Assembly (NCBI GenBank): GCA_002812745.2
Contig: NCSJ02000091.1
Location: forward strand, 62,001-126,000
Direction: 5' to 3'
From: Scytalidium lignicola
Lineage: Eukaryota; Ascomycota; Leotiomycetes
Length of the DNA: 64,000 nucleotides
Shown: positions 2,612 through 50,926 of the stretch, piece after piece
Layout: each line of letters opens with the position of its first letter
Position numbering within the stretch: position 1 is the first letter of the stretch
The notes under the pieces: model-generated
Database searches by the model: none
What the model was told of the DNA's origin: nothing
What the model saw: the letters and a program-made list of their open reading frames with translations, nothing else
Made by a program: the position numbers and the translations under genes

Positions 2612-2989
2612 GGATTCAATTGTGAAATTATTAATTTAAACATCAATAGCCTAATCTACTCGAGGTTGGGAAGGCATACAGTGATAAGAGTAGAGTCTTG
2701 ATCTTCACTTTATTGACTGTGGCTTATTGTAGCCTTTTTGCTGTGTAGTCTTTCTAAGTTGATTCGCCTCAACTTCGCCAACAAATACCGACCCACATAT
2801 GAAGGTTCTAGATGGATAAGATTGAGTGATGACTCGCGTAAGGTACATAATAATTGTACATTGATAAGCTGCCACAGTTCTATTGTAAGGCCCCGCACTA
2901 ATTTGTTTAAAGTTACATCCGTGCGCCGCCTTTCCCAGAGCCATCCCCGCCTCCCTTTGTTTAACCCGAAATCCGACGTTTCGAAAACA

Positions 2990-5900
2990 ATGCGCCTGTT
3001 GAAATATAATAATGCTAGCGAAATCACCTTGACAGAGAATTTATTTGGCGATGATATTCCCAAGTATGCCATACTATCCCATACATGGGGTACCGAGGAA
3101 GTTAGCTTCAAAGAGCTGATGGCTGGTACTGGCAAGAATAAGGCTGGCTATCATAAGATCCAGTTTTGTGGGACACAAGCAGATCGCGATGGTTTGAAAT
3201 ACTTTTGGGTAGATACCTGCTGTATTGATAAATCGGATAGTACCGAAGTTCAAGAGGCTATCAACTCTATGTTTCGCTGGTATCGTGATGGGGCGAAATG
3301 CTACGTTTATCTCTCAGATGTTTCGATCTCCGACACTTACAACCAATCCAGTCAGCTGCCTTGGGAGTCAGCTTTCCGGAAAAGCCGGTGGTTTACTCGG
3401 GGATGGACCCTCCAGGAGCTTATTGCTCCCGCAGTAGTAGAATTCTTCTCTATGGAGGGGGATATATTAGGAAATAAACAGTCGTTAGAACGACATATTC
3501 AAGACATAACTGGGATTCCCGCGAAAGCTCTCAGAGGCAGCCCTTTATCTGATTTTACTGTGCTTGAACGAATGACATGGTTTGGATTGCGAAAGACTAC
3601 CCGCCCTGAGGACGAGGCATACTCGTTGTTAGGTATTTTTGAAATTCATATGCCTCTACTCTATGGAGAGGGAAGAGATAACTCAATTCGTCGACTCCGG
3701 GAAGAGATTGGCAGAGCTTCAAAAGGCAAGCCTTTTTNATTTATTTGTCGTATCCATATCAGATAAAAAAAAANTCCTAAGTTGTTAGGATATTGTTAAC
3801 TGAAACAGGAATTCAACGCGAAGAATTCTCAGTTACTCTCAGTCTTTCAGATGTTTCTGAAACAACACACTTTGTGGCGAGGGAGAAGGAGCTAGCAGAA
3901 ATACACGAAAAACTTCGCGGAGACGGTAGTCGCCACACAGTAGTTCTTCATGGGCTCGGAGGAATGGGTAAAACACAACTTGCTATTGCATACGCAAAGA
4001 AGCACAAAGATGACTATTCAGCTATATTCTGGTTGAATACAAGGGATGAAAATTCTTTAAAGCAAAGCTTCGCTAAAGTTGCAAAACTAATACTACGAGA
4101 ACACTCTAAGGCCAGATGGTTAAGTGGTGTGGACATGGAAGACTTTGATGCGGTGGTCGATGCTATCAAAGCATGGTTAAGTCTTCCCAATAATACCCGA
4201 TGGCTAATCATATACGACAATTATGACAATGCAAAATTACCGGGGGTCATAGATTCTACAACGATAGATATCTGCAAGTTTCTTCCGGAATCATATCAAG
4301 GATCTGTTATTATCACAACTCGCTTATCGCGAGTTAATATGGGCCACCTTATCCGAATTGAGAAGTTGGAAAATATACATGACAGTCTTGAAATTCTCTC
4401 AAATTCCTCAAAGCGGAAAGGACTGAAGAATGGTAAGAGCTTTCTAAGTTTTGCATAATATACACACTAAATATAATATTAGACCCTAATGCTGTACAAC
4501 TAGCCAGAAAATTGGACGGGTTTCCTCTCGCATTAGCTACAGCTGGAGCATATCTTGCTCAAGTAGCAATCAGTGTCTCACATTACCTCCACTTATATAA
4601 AGCATCATGGTTTAAACTCCAAAAAGCAAGCCCTCCGCTAGCCTCATACGAAGACCGGACATTGTATTCAACATGGCAGCTTTCATTTGATCATATCAAA
4701 AAACGAAACCAACTTTCTGCCAAGCTTCTCCAATTTTGGGCATATTTTAGCAATGAGGATATCTGGTTTGAGCTTTTTCAACACAGCGATCAAGAAGATC
4801 CAGAGTGGATACGAGAGCTAAGTCAAGATGAATTCAGTTTTCATGAGACAGTTCAGGTATTAAATGACCACGGACTAATAGAGATGAATACGTCATCACA
4901 AGAGCGAAATGAATCAGCAGGATATAGTATTCATGGGTGTGTACACTCATGGTCAATTCATGTTTTAAATCCAGAATGGGATTGCGATTTGGCAAAGTTG
5001 GCTTTGAAATTTGTGGCATTGCATGTTCAGGGGCAAAATTCTGTCAATTGGTGGCTAATGCAACGACGTCTTCTTCAGCATGCTACAAGGTGTATAAACA
5101 GTATGCAAGACGGGAATATTAAAGATGACGGATTAGAATGGGCCCTACACAACTTGGGTGAACTTTTTGCGGACCAGGGAAAACTATACGAGGCTGAGAA
5201 GATGCACCAGCGAGCATTACAAGGAAGGGAAAGGACGTTAGGTACTAATCATAACTTGACACTAAATACGGTTAACAGCTTAGGTCTTATTTATGCAGAC
5301 CAGGGAAAACTGGACGAGGCTGAGAAGATGTATCGGCGAGCACTGCAAGGAAGGGAAAGGACGTTAGGTCCTGATCATGCATCGACACTAAATACAGTTA
5401 GCAACTTAGGCCGTCTTTACACAATGCAAGGCAAATTAGACGAGGCTGAAAAGATGCATCAGAGAGCACTGCAAGGAAAAGAAAAGGTATTAGACTGTGA
5501 TCATATATTGACACTTGGCACAATCAACGATTTGGGTCTTCTTTATGCTGGTCAAGGCAAGTTAGATGAAGCCAAAAATATGTATCAGCGAGCATTATAC
5601 GGATTTGAGAGGACGTTAGGCCCTGATCACACATCAACCCTGGATACAATTAATAACTTGGGTCTTCTTTATGCGGATCAAGACAAGCTAGACGAGGCTG
5701 AAACGATGTATCAGCGAGCACTACAAGGGTACGAGAAGACATTAACCCTAGAGAATGTTACGAACTATCGTCCAGCGCTCAACACGGTTTGGAATTTAGG
5801 TAATCTTTTTGCCGCCCAAGAGCGGATAGAGGAGGCAAGAGAGATGTACTCGAGGGCATACAGTGGCTTTGAGAATCTCCTAGGCACCTCTAGTGATCAA

Positions 5901-5996
5901 TGCCAAAGTCTTACTCATAGTATTGCATGTTTGGATCAGACCTTTTCAGAATCCAGTTTACCAAGGAACAATAAAAAGAGAAGGTTTCAGAAATGA
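2990..5996 (+). CDS. HET / NB-ARC / TPR protein (fungal NLR)
   Basis: A STAND-class NLR expected to act in heterokaryon-incompatibility or immune-like cell death. The ATG at 2990 opens directly into a HET domain: AILSHTWG, then FWVDTCCIDK, then a tryptophan-rich core ending in WTLQEL. An NB-ARC domain follows with P-loop GLGGMGKTQ, Walker B region WLIIYDNYDN and, after splicing, a GFPLAL motif. The C-terminus carries six kinesin-light-chain-type TPRs of 42 residues. An intron at 4433-4482 (GTAAGA...TTAG) is clear because it joins the frames exactly. The HET/NB-ARC junction holds two Ns (3738, 3774). With both removed the two frames coincide, leaving one TAA at 3778-3780, so either an intron I cannot define lies here or the gene is cut. 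By analogy with HET-bearing incompatibility NLRs, the TPRs would sense a ligand and NB-ARC oligomerisation would switch on the HET domain. Domain calls are secure; the junction is not. Confidence 0.88.
5154..5885 (+). repeat. Tandem TPR-coding repeats, 126-bp unit
   Basis: Six repeats start at 5154, 5280, 5406, 5532, 5658 and 5796. The first four intervals are exactly 126 bp (42 codons) and the last is 138 bp. Central copies are nearly identical, each with a Gly-Lys-Leu-Asp-Glu-Ala-Glu core followed by a Leu-Gly-Pro-Asp-His turn. This regularity suggests recent duplication or homogenisation. Confidence 0.85.
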
Positions 5997-28851: not shown

Positions 28852-31800
28852 ATGTCCAACCCTAACGATTACACTGTCGGCTGGATCTCCGCTACAGTTA
28901 CAGAATATGTTGCTGCACAGGCGTTTCTCGATGAAGAACACGAGGGTCCAGAATTTGTATCAACGAACGATCATAACGATTATACACTGGGGAAAGTTGG
29001 GAAACATAATGTCGTCATCGCTGTCTTACCTCAAGGGGAGTACGGCATATCGTCTGCGACAGCGGCCATAAAAGATATGTCAAGCAGCTTTCCTAACGTT
29101 AGAATTGGTCTGATGGTTGGTATCGGCGGTGGTGCTCCAAGTCCAAAACACGATATTCGTCTTGGTGATGTTGTGGTTAGTGCTGCTGGCAATGGAAAGG
29201 GGGGCATATTTCAATACGATTTCGGTATAGCGACACAAGGCCAAGAATTCCAAGAAAAACAGTTCCTCAATCAGCCGCCGGTTGTTTTGCGGACGGCGGT
29301 GAATGGACTCATGGCCCAGTACAAGAGAAAAGGCCACCAGTTTGAAGAGACCATCAATTCTATTCTTGAAAATAACCGAAGGATGCAAAAAGAATACAAG
29401 CGACCAGATTTAAGCAGTGACAAGTTGTATAAAAGTGACATCATTCATCCTCCAAATTGCGAGAAGAGCTGTACAGAGGTATGCGGCGACGAAGAATTCA
29501 AATTAGTACTGCGAAATCCACGGACGGAAGATGAGGATGACCCGAGAATCCACTACGGCCTGGTTGCCTCAGCAAACCGATTGATGGAGGATGCTCTGCT
29601 TCGGGACAAATTTGCCAAGGACAAAGATGTGCTATGTTTTGAAATGGAGGCAGCAGGACTGATGAACCAATTCCCTTGCCTAGTTATTCGTGGTATATGC
29701 GACTACTCGGACTCTCACAGAAATTGGGGTTGGCAGGGATATGCCGCAATGGTAGCTGCTGCATATGCTAAAGATCTCCTTTATCGAATTCTTCCAAATA
29801 AAGTCGAAGCTGAGAAAAAGATTATTGATATTTTTTCTAATGGTAAGCTAGATTAAAGGGCTGCCAAAATAAGACTTTTTAAATAACAACAATTAAGTTG
29901 CAGAAGATGTGGCCAATATTCGTTCCGCTACTGTTAAGACTAAAAATGTTGTTGACAGACTGGATTTAGATAGTCAATCGAACAAGATCAATAACTGGCT
30001 TCGTCCCCCTGATCCCTCAACCAACTTCAATAAAGCGACAAAAGAGCGGCATAAAGGAACTGGTTCATGGTTCCTCGAGAGCAAACAATTTAAGGAGTGG
30101 AAATCTGGAACACGCCGCTATCTCTGGTTACATGGGATTCCAGGATGTGGGAAGACCGTTCTCTGCTCGACAATCATCGAGAATATCCACCAGACCCAAG
30201 ATTCGTCTTGTGTTGTTGTTTATTTCTTCTTTGATTTTAAAGATGCAGACAAACAGTCGTTAGAAAAGATGATTCGTGCGCTTATTGCACAGTTATACTC
30301 AAAATGTGGGAATGCCCAAAAGGAACTCAAGGCCTTATTTTCATCCTGCGATGAGGGACGTAAACAACCGACACAGGAATCTCTCTGCATTACTTTCCAG
30401 CATATGATGAAGCATATCGAGAAGATTAAAATCGTTATAGATGCTCTAGACGAATGCACAACGCGAGGTGATTTACTACTCTGGATGAAGGAGTTCTCAA
30501 ACGTTAATGGAGTGAAATCTAACATTCTTGTTACGAGCCGGGATGAGGAAGATATTAGGTCGGGCCTGGAGCTTTGGCTGTATCAGGCTAACTTCGTCCC
30601 CGTTCAGCGAAATTCGGTACACTCGGACATTCGTGCATATGTCCAGAAAACACTGCGAGAGAATGGTGACTTCGAGAGATGGCATTCAACACCATCTATA
30701 CAAAATGAAATTGAGACTGAAATTATGAAGAAGGCAGACGGAATGTAAGATAGGCTATTATTATTATGATCTGCATGGTTTTATAACCACACGAAACTTA
30801 CTATCCGCATAGGTTTAGGTGGGCCGCTTGCCAACTTGACAGTTTGAAGGGATGTCTACATCTCAAGGCACTTCGCAAAGCGCTTGCATCACTCCCAAAG
30901 ACATTAGACGAAACATATTCGCGGATTTTGGCTAATATTAACCATAGCGAGGAGCATAGAGAGGATGCAATAAGGATTCTACAGTTTCTCACTTTCTCAG
31001 AACGGCCTTTGACGATTGGAGCAGTTGTAGATGCAATAGCAGTTAATCTGAGCGGAGATCTTCAATTCGATCCCAGCTATAGGATGCCAATTCCCCGAGA
31101 AATTTTGAGGATTTGTTCAAGTCTGGTCTCTCTAGCAACGGAAGAGCTTAATGATAAGACAAAAGGTGTAATTGAACTTGAATTAGCGCACTTTTCCGTT
31201 AAAGAGTACCTCATATCCGGACGAGTTGAGGAAAGCTTCCGAGAAAGTATGACTGAAATTTGTGCACAAGGTTCGATTACAAGAGTCTGCTTATCATACT
31301 TGTCGCATCTAGATAATAGATGTCCTGTTGAGAAAATCAACGCTGAATTTCCGTTGGCGGGATATTCTGTGCAATATTGGATGAATCATGCCAGATCTGC
31401 AGAGACTGACATATATGTCCGAAAAAGAATTCTCAAATTCTTTCTGCAGCAAAAGCAAGCATACGAAATGTGGGGTAAGCTTTTTGGCACAGATCAACCT
31501 TGGAGAGCAGAACTGGCGCAACTTAAAGATATAGAAACTCCATTATACTATGCATCTTTAGCAGGTCTTGAACAAACGGTAGAATCATTAATAGAGGAAG
31601 GAGAAGATGTCAATAAAAAAAAGTGGTATCTTCAACACTGCTCTTCAATCTGCTTCAACAGAAGGTTATGACAAGATAGTAGAAATATTATTGAATGCAG
31701 GAGCAGATGTTAATAAAGAAGGTGGTATTTATTATAATACTGCTCTTCAATCTGCTTCGGGAGAGGGTCATGAGAAGATAGTAAAACTATTATTAAATGC

Positions 31801-45385: not shown

Positions 45386-46242
45386 TTATTTCATTGCAAA
45401 GAGATCGACACCTCCATACTTATCGCCATTCAGCACTCTTAGCCCGTCGGCTCCCTTGATTTTAATATTTTCGAACGAGTGCAACACTCCTAATCCAAAA
45501 ACCCCAGTATAATCTGCAGAAATTACGTTGCCGTTCACAACCATGGCGTCCTTTCCGCCCTCAATATCGATATTGTCAAACTTATGGCCGGAGACCTCTG
45601 AAAGTGCTTCATGCAGCGTGGAATCTAATCCTCTCGAAGCACTCTCCAAAGCCTGGATTTCGGTTCTCTCCTTCACGGTGGCGACTTCTTCTTTCGCGAG
45701 TTGCTTCTCAGCGTTTGGGGCTGGAAATAAGATTCCAAGGTTGTTGACGAGGCCCGATATATCTTCAATTAGAGTCTTCGCTGCAGCACCATGATGGATT
45801 GCCCAGCTAGTCAACTTGAGGAGACTCGTGCCTTTCTGTCACTTGACAGCGATTTGGCGCATCTTATTGTTAACCGCCTCTATGGCAGGATCAGCAGCTA
45901 AGTCCTCAGGTGCGGGTGTAGCTGAATCGCCTTTAATCCTAAACGTTTTCGAGATCTTGTTACTGTCTTCCATGAGAACCAGGATTTGAAGAAGAGTGTC
46001 CTTGGCAGCCTGGATCTCTACCCTTGTTGCGGCAGGGTTGCCGAGCTGAGGGTCTTCGTCGATATGGACAGCCTCACCCCATCGCGAAAGACGAAGCCGT
46101 ACTAGGTAAGTTTGAGTTGGTACGTCTGGTAATCTTTCCTAAAGCGACGGCCGAGATGGATATACTCGAAGATTTCCACGCACGTTGTAAAGGCAGTCGC
46201 AATACTAATTGCCCCGGAAATAATACCGAAAGGCTCGGACAT
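45386..46242 (-). pseudogene. HeLo / HET-s-like prion-type cell-death effector, broken
   Basis: A minus-strand gene of 857 bp, about the length of HET-s-type genes. The start at 46242 opens into a HeLo domain N-terminus (M-S-E-P-F-G-I-I-S-G-A, then a hydrophobic helix and E-I-F-E-Y-I-H-L-G-R), the pore-forming module of such proteins. The C-terminus has two 16-residue repeats, N-I-D-I-E-G-G-K-D-A-M-V-V-N-G-N (45527-45574) and N-I-K-I-K-G-A-D-G-L-R-V-L-N-G-D (45422-45469), 35 residues apart, the layout and spacing of a HET-s amyloid domain, then Tyr-Gly-Gly. Two breaks inactivate it: the frame is lost at about 46100-46105, with TAG following, and a TGA stands in frame at 45839-45841 before the C-terminal part. 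In the family, amyloid templating of the repeats by an NLR exposes the HeLo domain, which attacks the membrane. It is divergent from such an NLR. Confidence 0.82.
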
Positions 46243-46891
46243 GATGCCTTTCACAAACCTGGTCTATCGCTGGTCGTGATGGCTCTTTAATTCGTGCTTG
46301 TGTATTTGTGGAAATCAGATTTGGGCCAGGTTTGAGGGAAGGCTTGATCCAACATGAGACAAGAGATGTTGAGGGAGTTAGAAGATATGCCTATCTGCGC
46401 CAGGGAAACAACACCCGAAGTTTTAAAGTGGTGGTGGTCAGGAGTATCTGATAGGCCCCGGCTGGCCAGTTGTGTGCGTTACCACACCTTCAGGTGCAGC
46501 AAATCCAAGCCTCAGCGCTTTGCGGCCTAGCTCATTTCGCCCGTCCACAGCGCTTAAATGTGAATGGCTATTGACTCGCATTTATAACCTGTGAGGCTGA
46601 TTTAGCTAGGACGAAGAGTCGTGGATGCCCAAACATTGCCTAGGGAGGGGAAGGGAAGTAAATTTCTGCACCACAGCCCCGTCTACCTAGTCTATAATCA
46701 GGCCCATCTACACTTTACTTCTATTTCTTATTTTCAGCGACTGCTTGTTGAAATTGCGGAACTTTCTGGCTGAAAGTAAAAAATTAGGACAAGAAGGGCA
46801 TCTCGGAGCTCTGCTGGTTTACTGTAGTGACCCAACCAATCTCTCAACGCCCCTCTCCCCTAAGAGCACGATATTTAACAAGGCTGCCTTC
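46243..46891. promoter_or_regulatory. Shared divergent promoter region of effector relic and NLR
   Basis: 649 bp between the effector start (46242, minus) and the NLR start (46892, plus). There is no other supportable gene. Divergent transcription would allow joint regulation. No specific operator is evident. Confidence 0.45.
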
Positions 46892-49800
46892 ATGCCGGAA
46901 GGGAGCGAGTATCATCATAATGTGGTTTATGGAGGAAATGTGCATCTGGGTAACATCATCCACGGTCCGAATGAACAAAACGGTTCGTCTCGCTTTCTAC
47001 GCATGCATTGCTTTGTACTAACTACCTATAACCTAGAATGTACCATCGACAAATTCCTTAGCGACCTGTTCTTAACAGATGCATCGGCTGACCTTGACAA
47101 GACCCGTAGGCTTAAAGGGGAGAGGGCTGCCGGAACTTGCGAGTGGCTTTTGAAGACTGAGGAATTTCAGGATTGGTTAACTGGGACGAGCCTGGAGCTC
47201 CTCTGGCTAACCGGTGTTCCCGGAATTGGCAAGACTGTTATCTCGTGTTTTGTGGTAGAAGAGCTGCAACGTACGGTGAAGGAAAACAACTCGGTGGTTC
47301 TGATATACTATTTCTGTGACAACAAAGATGAACAGCGGAGAACACCGATAGCAATTTTGAGAGGGATTCTTTTCCAGTTGTTGAAGCGACGACCCGAACT
47401 CTTCAAACTTATTGAGGATGATTACAAGATACAAAAGGCATCCATAGTTACCAAACTGGATACCTTATGGCGAGCACTGGATCGGATGTTGCAGTCTTTG
47501 GTTGACGACAAGGTATACATACTTATTGATGCTCTAGATGAGTGCGAGGAGTCATCACGAGGAGATTTTCTTGCCTTACTTGGAGAACTAGGTGAAGTGG
47601 CAAATGTCAAAATTCTCATAACTGGGAGGCCAGAGTTAGACATCGAGGAAACTGCTCAATCAATGGGAAGGAGTCTTAGAATAGATTCGGGGAATATTAA
47701 CGAGGACTTGTCACAGTTTATTAATATCCAAATTGCCAAACTCCAGAAGAAGAAAAAGTATCCGCTGAAATTGATTAACGATATCAAGACAACGCTGCAG
47801 CACAAAGCTGGTGGAACATTCTTGTGGGCATCATTAGTGTTGAAGGACATCGAAGCAACGAAGACGAGTGCAGCAGCCAGGAAGAAGCTTGAAGGTTTGC
47901 CTTCAGACTTGTCCGAAGTCTACAAGCGAATCCTCAAGAATATCAGTGGTGATGACATCGAAGGCGCGATGTTGGTTTTGCAGTGGGTGGTTGTTGCACG
48001 GAGGCCTATGACGGTTTGCGAGTTGGCCACAGCACAAGTTTTAGCTAGTGGGGATTGGGATAGCGACGCAGTACCGCCTTCCGATCTCGTGGATGAACGG
48101 AAGGACGGATTCAAAGCTTGCGGCTCACTTCTTTATCATGACCCCGAGAACCATACCATCAACCTCATTCACCAATCTGCAAAAGACTATCTTGTTGGGA
48201 CGGACTGCGAATCCCGCTATCGTGTCAACCGAGAAATGACGAGCCTCTCCATCGTAAAAACGTGCTGGGAGTACCTTAGTAAGGAGGAATTTAGTCGTGG
48301 CGATGTGATTGTCACCCGGACCGAGTCGAATGAACTACAGCCACGAAAACTCTCTAGGCGAATTCTAGAGACTTACGGTTTCCTTGGGTTTTCCACCGAA
48401 GAGCTGCGGGATGGGGTATCGGAAGATAGGTTTGAGTTGATCGTCGCTTTCATATGCCAATGCGAGAGCCTGCACAGCTTGCCATCGCTGCGCGACTTCT
48501 GGTTTATTACATTTATGCGTAAAGACTATAAAAATGGAGTGCAGGCTTTGATCAAGAAGGAAGCTGACTTGAATGTAACAGTAGGTAGAAATGGTATGAA
48601 AGCTCTACATATTGCAGCTTCTAACGGAAATGGCGCAATACTAGGGCTGTTACTAGCTGGGGGGGTCAATGTCATGTCCCGCACTGAAAACGGGGAGACG
48701 GCACTTCATCTAGCTGCGGAGAAGGGATTCAAAGACATCTGTGGGGTGTTGATTGAGAAGGGAGCCGACCTTAACGCCAAGACCCTACGAGAGCACGACA
48801 CCGCGCTGCACTTAGCGGCAGGGAATGGGCATCTGAAAGTAGCGTCGTTACTTCTGGAAAAGGGGGCTAATATTAATGAACAAAACAAGAGCAGATGCAC
48901 TGCCCTTTTCAAGGCTGTCGAATGGGGACGCCAAGAAATGGCTCTTCTTCTTTCGAAGAAAGGGGCCGATATTATGATTAAGGGCCAAGTGAGGGGTGAT
49001 GAACAGACGGCATTATTCCCCGCAGCTGCGACGGGATGCTGCGCAATTGTGAAACTCTTAGTTGAGACGGGGATTGAAATCAACGAGGAAAGTTTGTCGA
49101 GCACACCACTCTCCGAGGCGGCGGAAAATGGACATGAAGCAGTAGCACAACAATTGATTGATGAAGGGGCTGATCTCAAATGGAGACACCCCGATAATCA
49201 AAAGACGCTTCTGTCCCTTGCGGCGGAAGGGGGACACAAGGATATGCTAGAGTGGCTGGTGCGGAAAGGCCTTGATGTTGACGCCACAGCTCACTACGAG
49301 AATTGGTTCCGCGGAACAGCCACAGCCTTGCAGTTCGCCGCTGTGGTGGACGACCGAGAGATGGTCAAGGTGTTGATCAAGGCTGGGGCAGACCTCGGGA
49401 TAGGTCGCGACGAAGGGACTAGCCCGCTGCAATTAGCAGCACAGTATGGACGCGATTCAGTAGTGGAATTTTTGCTCGAGGCAGGGGGTGATGTGAATGA
49501 GAGTGATAACCGGGGTTGGACGGCGCTACACAGAGCTGCTCGAGATGGTCGCGATACAACGGTCTCCCTCTTGATTGGGAAGGGAGCAGACATTAACGCC
49601 AGAGCCAGCGATGGACAGACTGCCCTTCACGTTGTGTCTCAGGAAGTGAAGGATGTCTGGCGCGCCCCACCCGTCTCTAAAATCGAAAGAGTGCTCCAAA
49701 TATTGCTAGAGCACGGGGCATGCATTGAAGCCAGGGACTGCGCTGGGCGAACACCACTTTTCATAGCGGTTAGCAACAACTATCGAGTTATATCTTGTAT

Positions 49801-50926
49801 ACTACTTAACGGGGGTGCTCATACCTGTACAATGAGTGGTCAGGATCAGACCGGCCGTATGTATCCCAACATGGATCAACTTCTGAAGGCTACCCAACTC
49901 TGGCGTGATCAAGGAGATTACCAACTCATCTCAGAAAGAGAGGCCCATTCACACTATTTATCATTCTCAAACGATGACAGCGACTGGCCCTATTTGCGTA
50001 ATTCCGATGACAACGAGCTCCAAGCGGCGAAGAGCAGGACCGAGGACTTGTTGCGACTGCTATTTGAAGTGGCCGCTTACATCCTAGCCGAGGCTGAGCC
50101 AACCGGACGACGACTTGTTAAGGCAGCCAAGGAAGGATACATCACAGTTGTGTCGATGCTGCTGGCAAAGGAAGCAGATGGCTCGATTCGGAGAAAATAT
50201 AAGAGATCAGCACTCCGTGCCGCGGCTGGTGCCGGGCATGAAGAAATCGTGCGCGCGTTCCACAACAGCGGTGTTAAGATCAAGCCTGGGAAGAGCTATA
50301 CCAGATTAGCTCTAGATAAGGCAGCTTCCAATGGACACGCAAGCATTGTTCGTTTTTTACTTGAAAATGGGGCTAAAGTAGATACAGCTATGTATGATGA
50401 TGAAGAGGTTAGATGGACTCCTTTACTCAGAGCAGCTGCTCAGGGTCACCAAGATGTAGTTCAGATTCTACTAGACGGAGGCGCAAACATATTGGACTAT
50501 AATAGTCAAGGAAGTGTGCTTGAGTTAGCCATCAAGAATGGAGATGACAGCGTAGCTCAAGTTCTTCTCAACCGAGGGGCTAGCGTGATTGATCTAAGAA
50601 GCCTCTATAATCTACCGGATTTCCTAATGCTGAACCTTAGTGTTGAGACTATGGTAGCGCTCTTACAGCTTGCAGTAGATCTAAAAATCAATATCCTAGT
50701 CGTGAAGCCGCTGTCCTGGGCTATGTCTAAAGGCCAAGATGCTACACTTAGACTTCTAGGCCTAGATCGAGAGTGTTTCGATATTAAAGGTAAAGATGGA
50801 CAGATTCTCTTAACGTGGGCAATTGAGAAGGGATATGATGATGTTATTAATTGCTTGCTGGAAAAGGGTGTTCAAATGAATGTCCCAGCTAGTGAGATGT
50901 TAATTGAGGATATGTGGCTCTCCTAG
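46892..50926 (+). CDS. NACHT / ankyrin-repeat NLR with short amyloid-like N-terminus
   Basis: The first ATG in frame is 46892; an upstream frame lacks one. A 54-bp intron at 46983-47036 with a perfect TACTAAC branch point separates exon 1 (about 30 residues) from the rest; its length is a multiple of three, so the frame stays open without splicing. Exon 1 encodes N-V-V-Y-G-G-N-V-H-L-G-N (residues 10-21), similar in its Asn, Gly-Gly and Gly-Asn positions to the repeats of the divergent HET-s-like gene. Exon 2 has a linker, then NACHT: P-loop G-V-P-G-I-G-K-T, Walker B Y-I-L-I-D-A-L-D-E-C. A helical region precedes a long ankyrin array (about residues 590 to the C-terminus), which should be the ligand sensor. 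Intact, roughly 1,325 aa. By analogy with NWD2, the N-terminal peptide could template an amyloid effector; this is inference, and here the nearby effector is broken. Confidence 0.85.
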   Translation: MPEGSEYHHNVVYGGNVHLGNIIHGPNEQNGSSRFLRMHCFVLTTYNLECTIDKFLSDLFLTDASADLDKTRRLKGERAAGTCEWLLKTEEFQDWLTGTSLELLWLTGVPGIGKTVISCFVVEELQRTVKENNSVVLIYYFCDNKDEQRRTPIAILRGILFQLLKRRPELFKLIEDDYKIQKASIVTKLDTLWRALDRMLQSLVDDKVYILIDALDECEESSRGDFLALLGELGEVANVKILITGRPELDIEETAQSMGRSLRIDSGNINEDLSQFINIQIAKLQKKKKYPLKLINDIKTTLQHKAGGTFLWASLVLKDIEATKTSAAARKKLEGLPSDLSEVYKRILKNISGDDIEGAMLVLQWVVVARRPMTVCELATAQVLASGDWDSDAVPPSDLVDERKDGFKACGSLLYHDPENHTINLIHQSAKDYLVGTDCESRYRVNREMTSLSIVKTCWEYLSKEEFSRGDVIVTRTESNELQPRKLSRRILETYGFLGFSTEELRDGVSEDRFELIVAFICQCESLHSLPSLRDFWFITFMRKDYKNGVQALIKKEADLNVTVGRNGMKALHIAASNGNGAILGLLLAGGVNVMSRTENGETALHLAAEKGFKDICGVLIEKGADLNAKTLREHDTALHLAAGNGHLKVASLLLEKGANINEQNKSRCTALFKAVEWGRQEMALLLSKKGADIMIKGQVRGDEQTALFPAAATGCCAIVKLLVETGIEINEESLSSTPLSEAAENGHEAVAQQLIDEGADLKWRHPDNQKTLLSLAAEGGHKDMLEWLVRKGLDVDATAHYENWFRGTATALQFAAVVDDREMVKVLIKAGADLGIGRDEGTSPLQLAAQYGRDSVVEFLLEAGGDVNESDNRGWTALHRAARDGRDTTVSLLIGKGADINARASDGQTALHVVSQEVKDVWRAPPVSKIERVLQILLEHGACIEARDCAGRTPLFIAVSNNYRVISCILLNGGAHTCTMSGQDQTGRMYPNMDQLLKATQLWRDQGDYQLISEREAHSHYLSFSNDDSDWPYLRNSDDNELQAAKSRTEDLLRLLFEVAAYILAEAEPTGRRLVKAAKEGYITVVSMLLAKEADGSIRRKYKRSALRAAAGAGHEEIVRAFHNSGVKIKPGKSYTRLALDKAASNGHASIVRFLLENGAKVDTAMYDDEEVRWTPLLRAAAQGHQDVVQILLDGGANILDYNSQGSVLELAIKNGDDSVAQVLLNRGASVIDLRSLYNLPDFLMLNLSVETMVALLQLAVDLKINILVVKPLSWAMSKGQDATLRLLGLDRECFDIKGKDGQILLTWAIEKGYDDVINCLLEKGVQMNVPASEMLIEDMWLS

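What the first reader, a model, noticed from the sequence alone, without database searches (positions are those of the whole stretch)
45386..50926. HET-s/NWD2-like pair: dead HeLo amyloid effector divergent from an intact NACHT/ankyrin NLR
The minus gene has a HeLo N-terminus and two amyloid-type repeats 35 residues apart, as in HET-s. The divergent plus gene is an NLR whose first exon encodes a short peptide with matching Asn, Gly-Gly and Gly-Asn positions. Established knowledge: in Podospora the neighbouring NWD2 templates HET-S through such a motif. Here the sensor has ankyrin repeats instead of WD40 repeats, which would be a variant of the system, and the effector is broken.
Basis: partly seen in the sequence, partly recalled or inferred. 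Interest (0 to 1): 0.9.

Follow-up and report, generated by a model that had tools for sequence, protein, structure and literature searches.

The report
HET-S/NWD2-type pair, ankyrin sensor, broken effector
A wood-dwelling fungus carries a known type of cell-suicide gene pair, a sensor and a pore-forming killer linked by an amyloid signal, in which the sensor looks whole but the killer gene looks recently broken.

Summary
The minus gene (45386-46242) is a HET-S homologue: its three open pieces match Pfam HeLo and its tail carries two repeats (36.0 and 39.7 bits; best of 2000 shuffled tails 8.2). It is broken twice: a frame change near 46105 and a TGA at 45839-45841. The plus gene (exons 46892-46982, 47037-50926) is an unbroken 1326-aa NACHT-ankyrin NLR, identical to Scytalidium lignicola B7463_g5552. 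Exon 1 encodes one r0-type motif. It matches relatives' r0 motifs (21.1 bits; best of 2000 shuffles 9.6) but not, taken alone, its own effector's repeats. Four related NLR/effector pairs, one from Hyaloscypha finlandica, share exact contig lengths; those effectors are full-length. The same genome holds an apparently intact pair with a WD40 sensor. Ankyrin-bearing NWD2 homologues are already in print, so this is a new member of a known kind. The uncommon part is a broken effector beside a whole sensor, the mirror of Podospora het-s strains. It rests on one Ion Torrent assembly; normal branch lengths suggest that the break is recent or partly technical.

The parts
45386..46242 (-). HET-S-type effector gene (HeLo + two amyloid-type repeats), broken; NCBI model B7463_g5551 covers it only by an unrelated upstream exon and an intron over the stop
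46105..46242 (-). HeLo N-terminal piece, 46 codons from ATG
   Evidence: Pfam HeLo E 7.8e-13, profile 1-40
46099..46111 (-). stretch holding the frame change
   Evidence: homologue residues 1-48 and 45-283 lie in different frames and overlap here
45839..45841 (-). in-frame TGA stop in the HeLo domain
45590..46105 (-). rest of HeLo domain, interrupted by the TGA
   Evidence: Pfam HeLo E 5.4e-8 and 3.7e-8; HET-s HeLo structures 2wvo/2wvn E 2.3e-8 and 7.9e-7 for the part after the TGA
45527..45589 (-). amyloid-type repeat r1
   Evidence: 36.0 bits, best of 2000 shuffles 8.2
45422..45484 (-). amyloid-type repeat r2
   Evidence: 39.7 bits
46892..46982 (+). NLR exon 1, with r0-type motif (residues 5-25, about 46904-46966)
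   Evidence: r0 profile of four relatives 21.1 bits; spliced product equals NCBI protein
46983..47036 (+). 54-base intron (GT...TACTAAC...AG), in frame
47037..50926 (+). NLR exon 2: linker, NACHT, ankyrin repeats, stop
47132..47629 (+). NACHT (NPHP3_N) domain
   Evidence: E 6.3e-42
48689..50602 (+). ankyrin repeat region (span of the best stretches listed)
   Evidence: Ank_2 E 1e-101 and others
46243..46891 (.). 649-base shared upstream region of the divergent pair
   Evidence: 0.6 kb in Podospora (PMC4344463)

Best explanation
This is a NWD2/HET-S-type amyloid-signalling cell-death pair of the HRAM class with an ankyrin sensor. [quoted passage not shown] In S. lignicola DSM 105466 the receptor is intact but the effector is interrupted inside the HeLo domain, recently on an evolutionary scale, so the local output is most likely off. 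Shown here: gene structure, domains, repeats, relatedness of r0 to r1/r2 at family level, breaks in the assembly. Inferred from Podospora work: ligand, oligomerisation, templating, pore formation.
Confidence: 0.82

Rival explanations
1. The effector is intact and the lesions are assembly errors, so the pair is an ordinary working member.
For: Ion Torrent PGM, five million reads of 140-260 bases for 47.7 Mb (PMC6256649, whole text; roughly 15-27x by my arithmetic); no clear excess change on the window effector's branch compared with P0176; 14 single Ns in the window.
Against: Two lesions about 265 bases apart, one a stop by substitution; the longest run of one base wholly inside 46099-46111 is 2, though a run of three T starts at 46111; the 3.9-kb NLR exon beside it is open throughout; none of the 14 Ns lies in the gene.
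Confidence: 0.15
2. The gene is functional with introns as in NCBI model B7463_g5551.
For: A GT-AG reading exists that skips the TGA and starts at an upstream exon 46581-46489.
Against: It drops the 46-residue HeLo N-terminus, which still matches Pfam at 7.8e-13, and a stretch present in 19 of 20 relatives (P0182 lacks it); the in-genome homologue at C646 is one uninterrupted frame.
Confidence: 0.04
3. The NLR exon-1 peptide is not an HRAM but a PP/RHIM-like or unrelated motif, so the NLR does not signal to HeLo proteins.
For: The peptide alone is not matched by the repeat profiles of its own effector subfamily; it lacks the hydrophobic residue expected at motif position 6 (position list from PMC4344463; alignment by eye).
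Against: Exon-1 peptides of P0003, P0004 and P0024 are colinear with it, and as a set match the repeat family; no GxQxG, the feature given for PP in PMC5485727 (section read).
Confidence: 0.07
4. The orphan sensor now acts through the intact effector of the WD40 pair at contig C646.
For: Window and C646 r0 motifs share YHH and LGNI.H; window r0 scores slightly better against C646-type repeats (13 and 19 of 1000 shuffles as good) than against its own (261, 468).
Against: Weak, uncorrected for several tests; the three Podospora systems tested (HET-S, HELLF, HELLP) do not cross-seed (PMC7889193, passages).
Confidence: 0.07

Closest known systems
NWD2/HET-S of Podospora anserina (HRAM1)
   Same: Divergent genes with about 0.6 kb between; HeLo + r1/r2 effector with repeats 36 apart; NACHT NLR with one N-terminal r0 (PMC4344463 and PMC3321046, passages).
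   Different: Sensor has ankyrin not WD40 repeats; repeats are 35 apart and, by eye, 2-3 residues longer between core and Gly-Asn; effector broken, whereas in Podospora het-s strains it is nwd2 that is a pseudogene.
HRAM subfamilies 1-5 (PMC4518210, passages)
   Same: HeLo protein with two pseudo-repeats and, in 98 of 155 cases there, an adjacent NLR with a single motif.
   Different: Subclass not assigned here; logos are figures that are not held.
sigma locus of Nectria haematococca (HET-eN/SesA/SesB)
   Same: NACHT-ankyrin NLR with an N-terminal region shared with its effectors (PMC3321046, passage).
   Different: Different motif and effectors.
C646 pair of the same genome (L027)
   Same: HeLo + two repeats, divergent NACHT NLR with r0 on a short first exon.
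   Different: WD40 repeats (PF00400 E 3e-151); effector unbroken; a different repeat subclass.

Membership tests
HET-S/NWD2-type HRAM pair | effector with N-terminal HeLo domain | tested here: met
   HET-s HeLo structures
HET-S/NWD2-type HRAM pair | two C-terminal pseudo-repeats with conserved Gly | tested here: met
HET-S/NWD2-type HRAM pair | repeats related in sequence to the HET-s amyloid core | tested here: inconclusive
   A3 (11 tails, 2 of them C646-type) E 2.5e-4 and A4 (33 effectors) E 0.0013 to 2mus; subfamily-only profiles A1 and A5 E 0.44 and 0.18
HET-S/NWD2-type HRAM pair | adjacent NLR with a single N-terminal motif like the effector's | tested here: met
   met at family level (r0 profile on window peptide; r0 set vs repeat set); the window peptide taken alone does not match the repeats
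HET-S/NWD2-type HRAM pair | NLR with nucleotide-binding domain and ligand-binding repeats | tested here: met
   ankyrin repeats, as in some NWD2 homologues (PMC4344463)
HET-S/NWD2-type HRAM pair | motifs form amyloid and seed each other; HeLo kills | not testable with these tools
   bench assay needed
Pfam HET-s_218-289 (PF11558) | score over the family's cut-off | tested here: not met
   no hit in the window (up to E 1; up to E 10); not filed as a member
Canonical NWD2 (NACHT-WD40) | WD40 repeats | tested here: not met
   ankyrin families only among repeat families; not filed as a member
PP/RHIM-type signalling NLR | GxQxG core | tested here: not met
   absent from the exon-1 peptide; feature from PMC5485727

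The most novel reading that the evidence does not exclude
A sensor that outlived its own effector and is being re-tuned to signal through the effector of the second pair in the same genome: its r0 has drifted away from its dead partner's repeats and shares residues with the r0 of the WD40 pair, so two receptors with different ligand domains would converge on one HeLo killer, against the present picture of separate, non-crossing HRAM pathways.
Probability: 0.07. Interest if true: 0.65.

Novelty: new member of a known kind. Interest (0 to 1): 0.35.

Why it matters
It adds a conserved ankyrin-sensor branch of the HET-S/NWD2 system (S. lignicola, H. finlandica and three unnamed metagenome contigs here) and shows ankyrin- and WD40-sensor pairs side by side in one fungus. 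If the break is real, it is the reverse of the best-known case (Podospora het-s strains: broken sensor, intact prion protein) and makes a simple question testable: what happens to an amyloid receptor, and to its r0 motif, once its killer partner is lost.

Tried and rejected
Direct match of window r0 to effector repeats: not significant. The r0 profile on the window effector tail: 3.4 and 1.7 bits, above the 99th percentile of 2000 shuffled tails (2.1) for the better one but below their maximum (5.2), so not used. PP/RHIM reading of the peptide, considered from the VHLGN core: rejected because related exon-1 peptides show the HRAM layout and there is no GxQxG. NCBI model of the effector: rejected. 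Mirror tree: not significant. Fold search with the window's 150-aa piece: HET-s HeLo chains rank 1 and 2, but the lowest E is 0.64. Search of the genome with the window-type tail found, besides itself, only C646 (E 0.0025), so no second effector of this subclass was seen among the candidates scored. The HRAM subclass could not be assigned (logos not held). For print on an NLR of this kind without its effector I searched; judging by titles, abstract starts and the passages read, I saw none. The phrases 'orphan NLR' and 'effector loss' occur in none of the 10 papers listed of 14. Most subscription papers are not in that library.

Full report
Setting. The window is bases 62001-126000 of contig C655 (138,737 bases) of an assembly of 46.85 Mb in 664 contigs. 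The plus-strand gene's product is listed as B7463_g5552, partial, of Scytalidium lignicola on a contig of 138,737 bases, so the organism is S. lignicola. The genome announcement (PMC6256649, whole text read) describes an Ion Torrent assembly of strain DSM 105466, version NCSJ02, 47.7 Mb in 826 contigs; the held copy is a little smaller.

The sensor. The ORF 46691-50926 is open throughout. A 54-base intron at 46983-47036 (GT...TACTAAC...AG) lies in frame; splicing it gives 1326 residues identical to the NCBI protein. Exon 1 encodes 30 residues, exon 2 a NACHT domain (NPHP3_N E 6.3e-42) and ankyrin repeats (Ank_2 E 1e-101). No lesion is seen.

The effector. Three open pieces on the minus strand match Pfam HeLo, and the last also matches the HET-s HeLo structures 2wvo, 2wvn and 2wvq (E 2.3e-8 to 9.3e-7). 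The homologue P0176 aligns across nearly all of it, but changes frame between 46099 and 46111 and meets a TGA at 45839-45841. The piece after the TGA has its first Met at residue 99, inside r1, so no separate downstream product with HeLo is to be expected. NCBI's model B7463_g5551, marked partial, avoids both lesions by an upstream exon (46581-46489) and an intron. It loses the HeLo N-terminus and a stretch present in 19 of 20 relatives, and I take it for a gene-caller artefact.

The repeats. The tail has two repeats 35 residues apart; in HET-S they start at 226 and 262, 36 apart (PMC4344463, passage). In the family alignment the window's r1 and r2 have no gaps; 5 of 20 relatives have a short gap in r1 and 3 of 20 in r2. 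A profile of those 40 repeats, window left out, scores 36.0 (r1) and 39.7 bits (r2) on the window tail; the best of 2000 shuffled tails scores 8.2. Pfam's HET-s core family PF11558 does not match the window; in this genome it hits C259 strongly and C37 at E 0.25. A profile of nine window-type tails finds the HET-s amyloid as its best PDB hit but only at E 0.18; the profile of 21 window-type rows gives 0.44. With two tails of the other subclass added, E is 2.5e-4, and a profile of 33 effectors of both subclasses gives 0.0013. So the link to the HET-s core is clear for the wider family and weak for this branch alone.

The sensor motif. In one search I read the first 110 residues of all 52 NLR hits. 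Four (P0001, which is the window's own, P0003, P0004, P0024) begin with a short peptide holding a Leu-Gly-Asn core; the other 48 start inside the gene or have other N-termini, which does not show that their genes lack the motif. A profile of P0003, P0004, P0024 and the C646 receptor scores 21.1 bits on the window peptide; best of 2000 shuffles 9.6, best of the 48 controls 0.1. The r0 set (aligned by hand) against the r1/r2 set, profile to profile: P 2.3e-5 (probability 76%) with the window, 1.5e-6 without it, 1.7e-5 without window and C646; none of 200 or 150 column-shuffled controls reached these. The window peptide alone does not reach significance: 69 of 150 shuffles as good; 261 and 468 of 1000 with the own-subclass r1 and r2 profiles, 13 and 19 of 1000 with the C646-type ones. 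The four other r0 peptides, singly, give 12 to 22 of 1000 with the own-subclass r1 profile and 155 to 1000 of 1000 with r2. Against the position list of PMC4344463 (passage), aligned by eye with one gap, the window peptide keeps hydrophobic residues at 3, 8, 14 and 16, Gly at 10 and 17 and Asn at 18, and lacks the Asn at 1, the hydrophobic residue at 6 and the charge at 13: 7 of 10. P0004 keeps 9 of 10, P0003 8 of 10.

Relatives. One search returned 39 effectors. Five share the exact contig length of an NLR: the window's own and P0003/P0176 (Hyaloscypha finlandica), P0005/P0177, P0007/P0179 and P0027/P0180. All five NLRs are listed with NACHT-type (PF24883) and ankyrin domains. The four other effectors are 283-291 residues, without a break in the listed proteins. 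Adjacency itself was not seen, because those contigs could not be fetched with the collections on hand. The distance matrices of the five pairs correlate only weakly (r 0.48; 18 of 120 permutations as high).

Same genome. Contig C646 holds a second pair that looks intact: a 279-residue HeLo effector in one frame with two repeats of another subclass, divergent from a NACHT receptor (NPHP3_N E 3e-30) followed by WD40 repeats (PF00400 E 3e-151). The receptor lies in three frames: a short r0 exon, the NACHT part and the WD40 part. Both junctions hold GT-AG intron-like sequence, as read by eye; no RNA was seen. Thus WD40 and ankyrin versions coexist. A third HET-s-type gene seems broken too: HeLo pieces in two frames at the end of C591 and a PF11558 match with a TGA at the end of C259; whether they are one gene is unproven.

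How recent is the loss? Distances of the window effector to five outgroup effectors are 0.793, 0.733, 0.934, 0.816 and 0.994, against 0.793, 0.701, 0.920, 0.816 and 0.953 for P0176: equal in two, slightly larger in three. There is no sign of long relaxed evolution, so the gene was kept until recently or the lesions are partly technical. Ion Torrent data are prone to indels in runs (recalled). The frame-change stretch holds no run over two, though three T begin at its edge, and the TGA is a substitution.

Mechanism. By the Podospora model (PMC4344463 and PMC12881547, passages; PMC5485727, abstract and two sections), ligand binding oligomerises the receptor, r0 folds as amyloid and templates r1-r2, and the HeLo domain attacks the membrane. 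In this strain the chain would stop at the effector.

Novelty. PMC4344463 states that some NWD2 homologues carry ankyrin repeats; an ankyrin NLR with an amyloid-type motif is known from the sigma locus (PMC3321046); adjacent NLR genes were found for 98 of 155 HeLo-HRAM genes (PMC4518210). In Podospora het-s strains nwd2 is the pseudogene. So this is a new member of a known kind in an uncommon state, with the receptor surviving the loss of its effector.

Noticed in passing
window 28891-31671, plus: PNP_UDP-NACHT NLR-type gene about 14 kb from the pair (PF01048 E 7.7e-8, NPHP3_N E 8.5e-46).
   Followed up: partly
window 2876-5993, plus: HET, NB-ARC and TPR domains in consecutive frames with Ns at 3738 and 3774 between the first two; a third NLR-type gene in 64 kb.
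   Followed up: partly
L032 end (contig C591) and L030 end (contig C259): Two contig ends carry an N-terminal HeLo part in two frames and a canonical HET-s core (PF11558, E 2.2e-24) with a TGA inside; possibly one broken HET-s-type gene split by the assembly.
   Followed up: partly
L012 / L028 (contig C31): A 327-residue HeLo ORF whose tail has two other repeat-like stretches ending in Tyr-Gly-Asn/Asp; a 373-residue HeLo ORF about 8 kb away (L033:3488-4606) starts with a similar single stretch.
   Followed up: no
L014 / L029 (contig C66): HeLo ORF of 290 residues with a Gly/Asn/Gln-rich tail of another kind, next to a divergent NLR-like ORF (by eye).
   Followed up: no
whole genome G000: At least 56 NACHT matches and 15 HeLo matches (counted exon by exon).
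   Followed up: no
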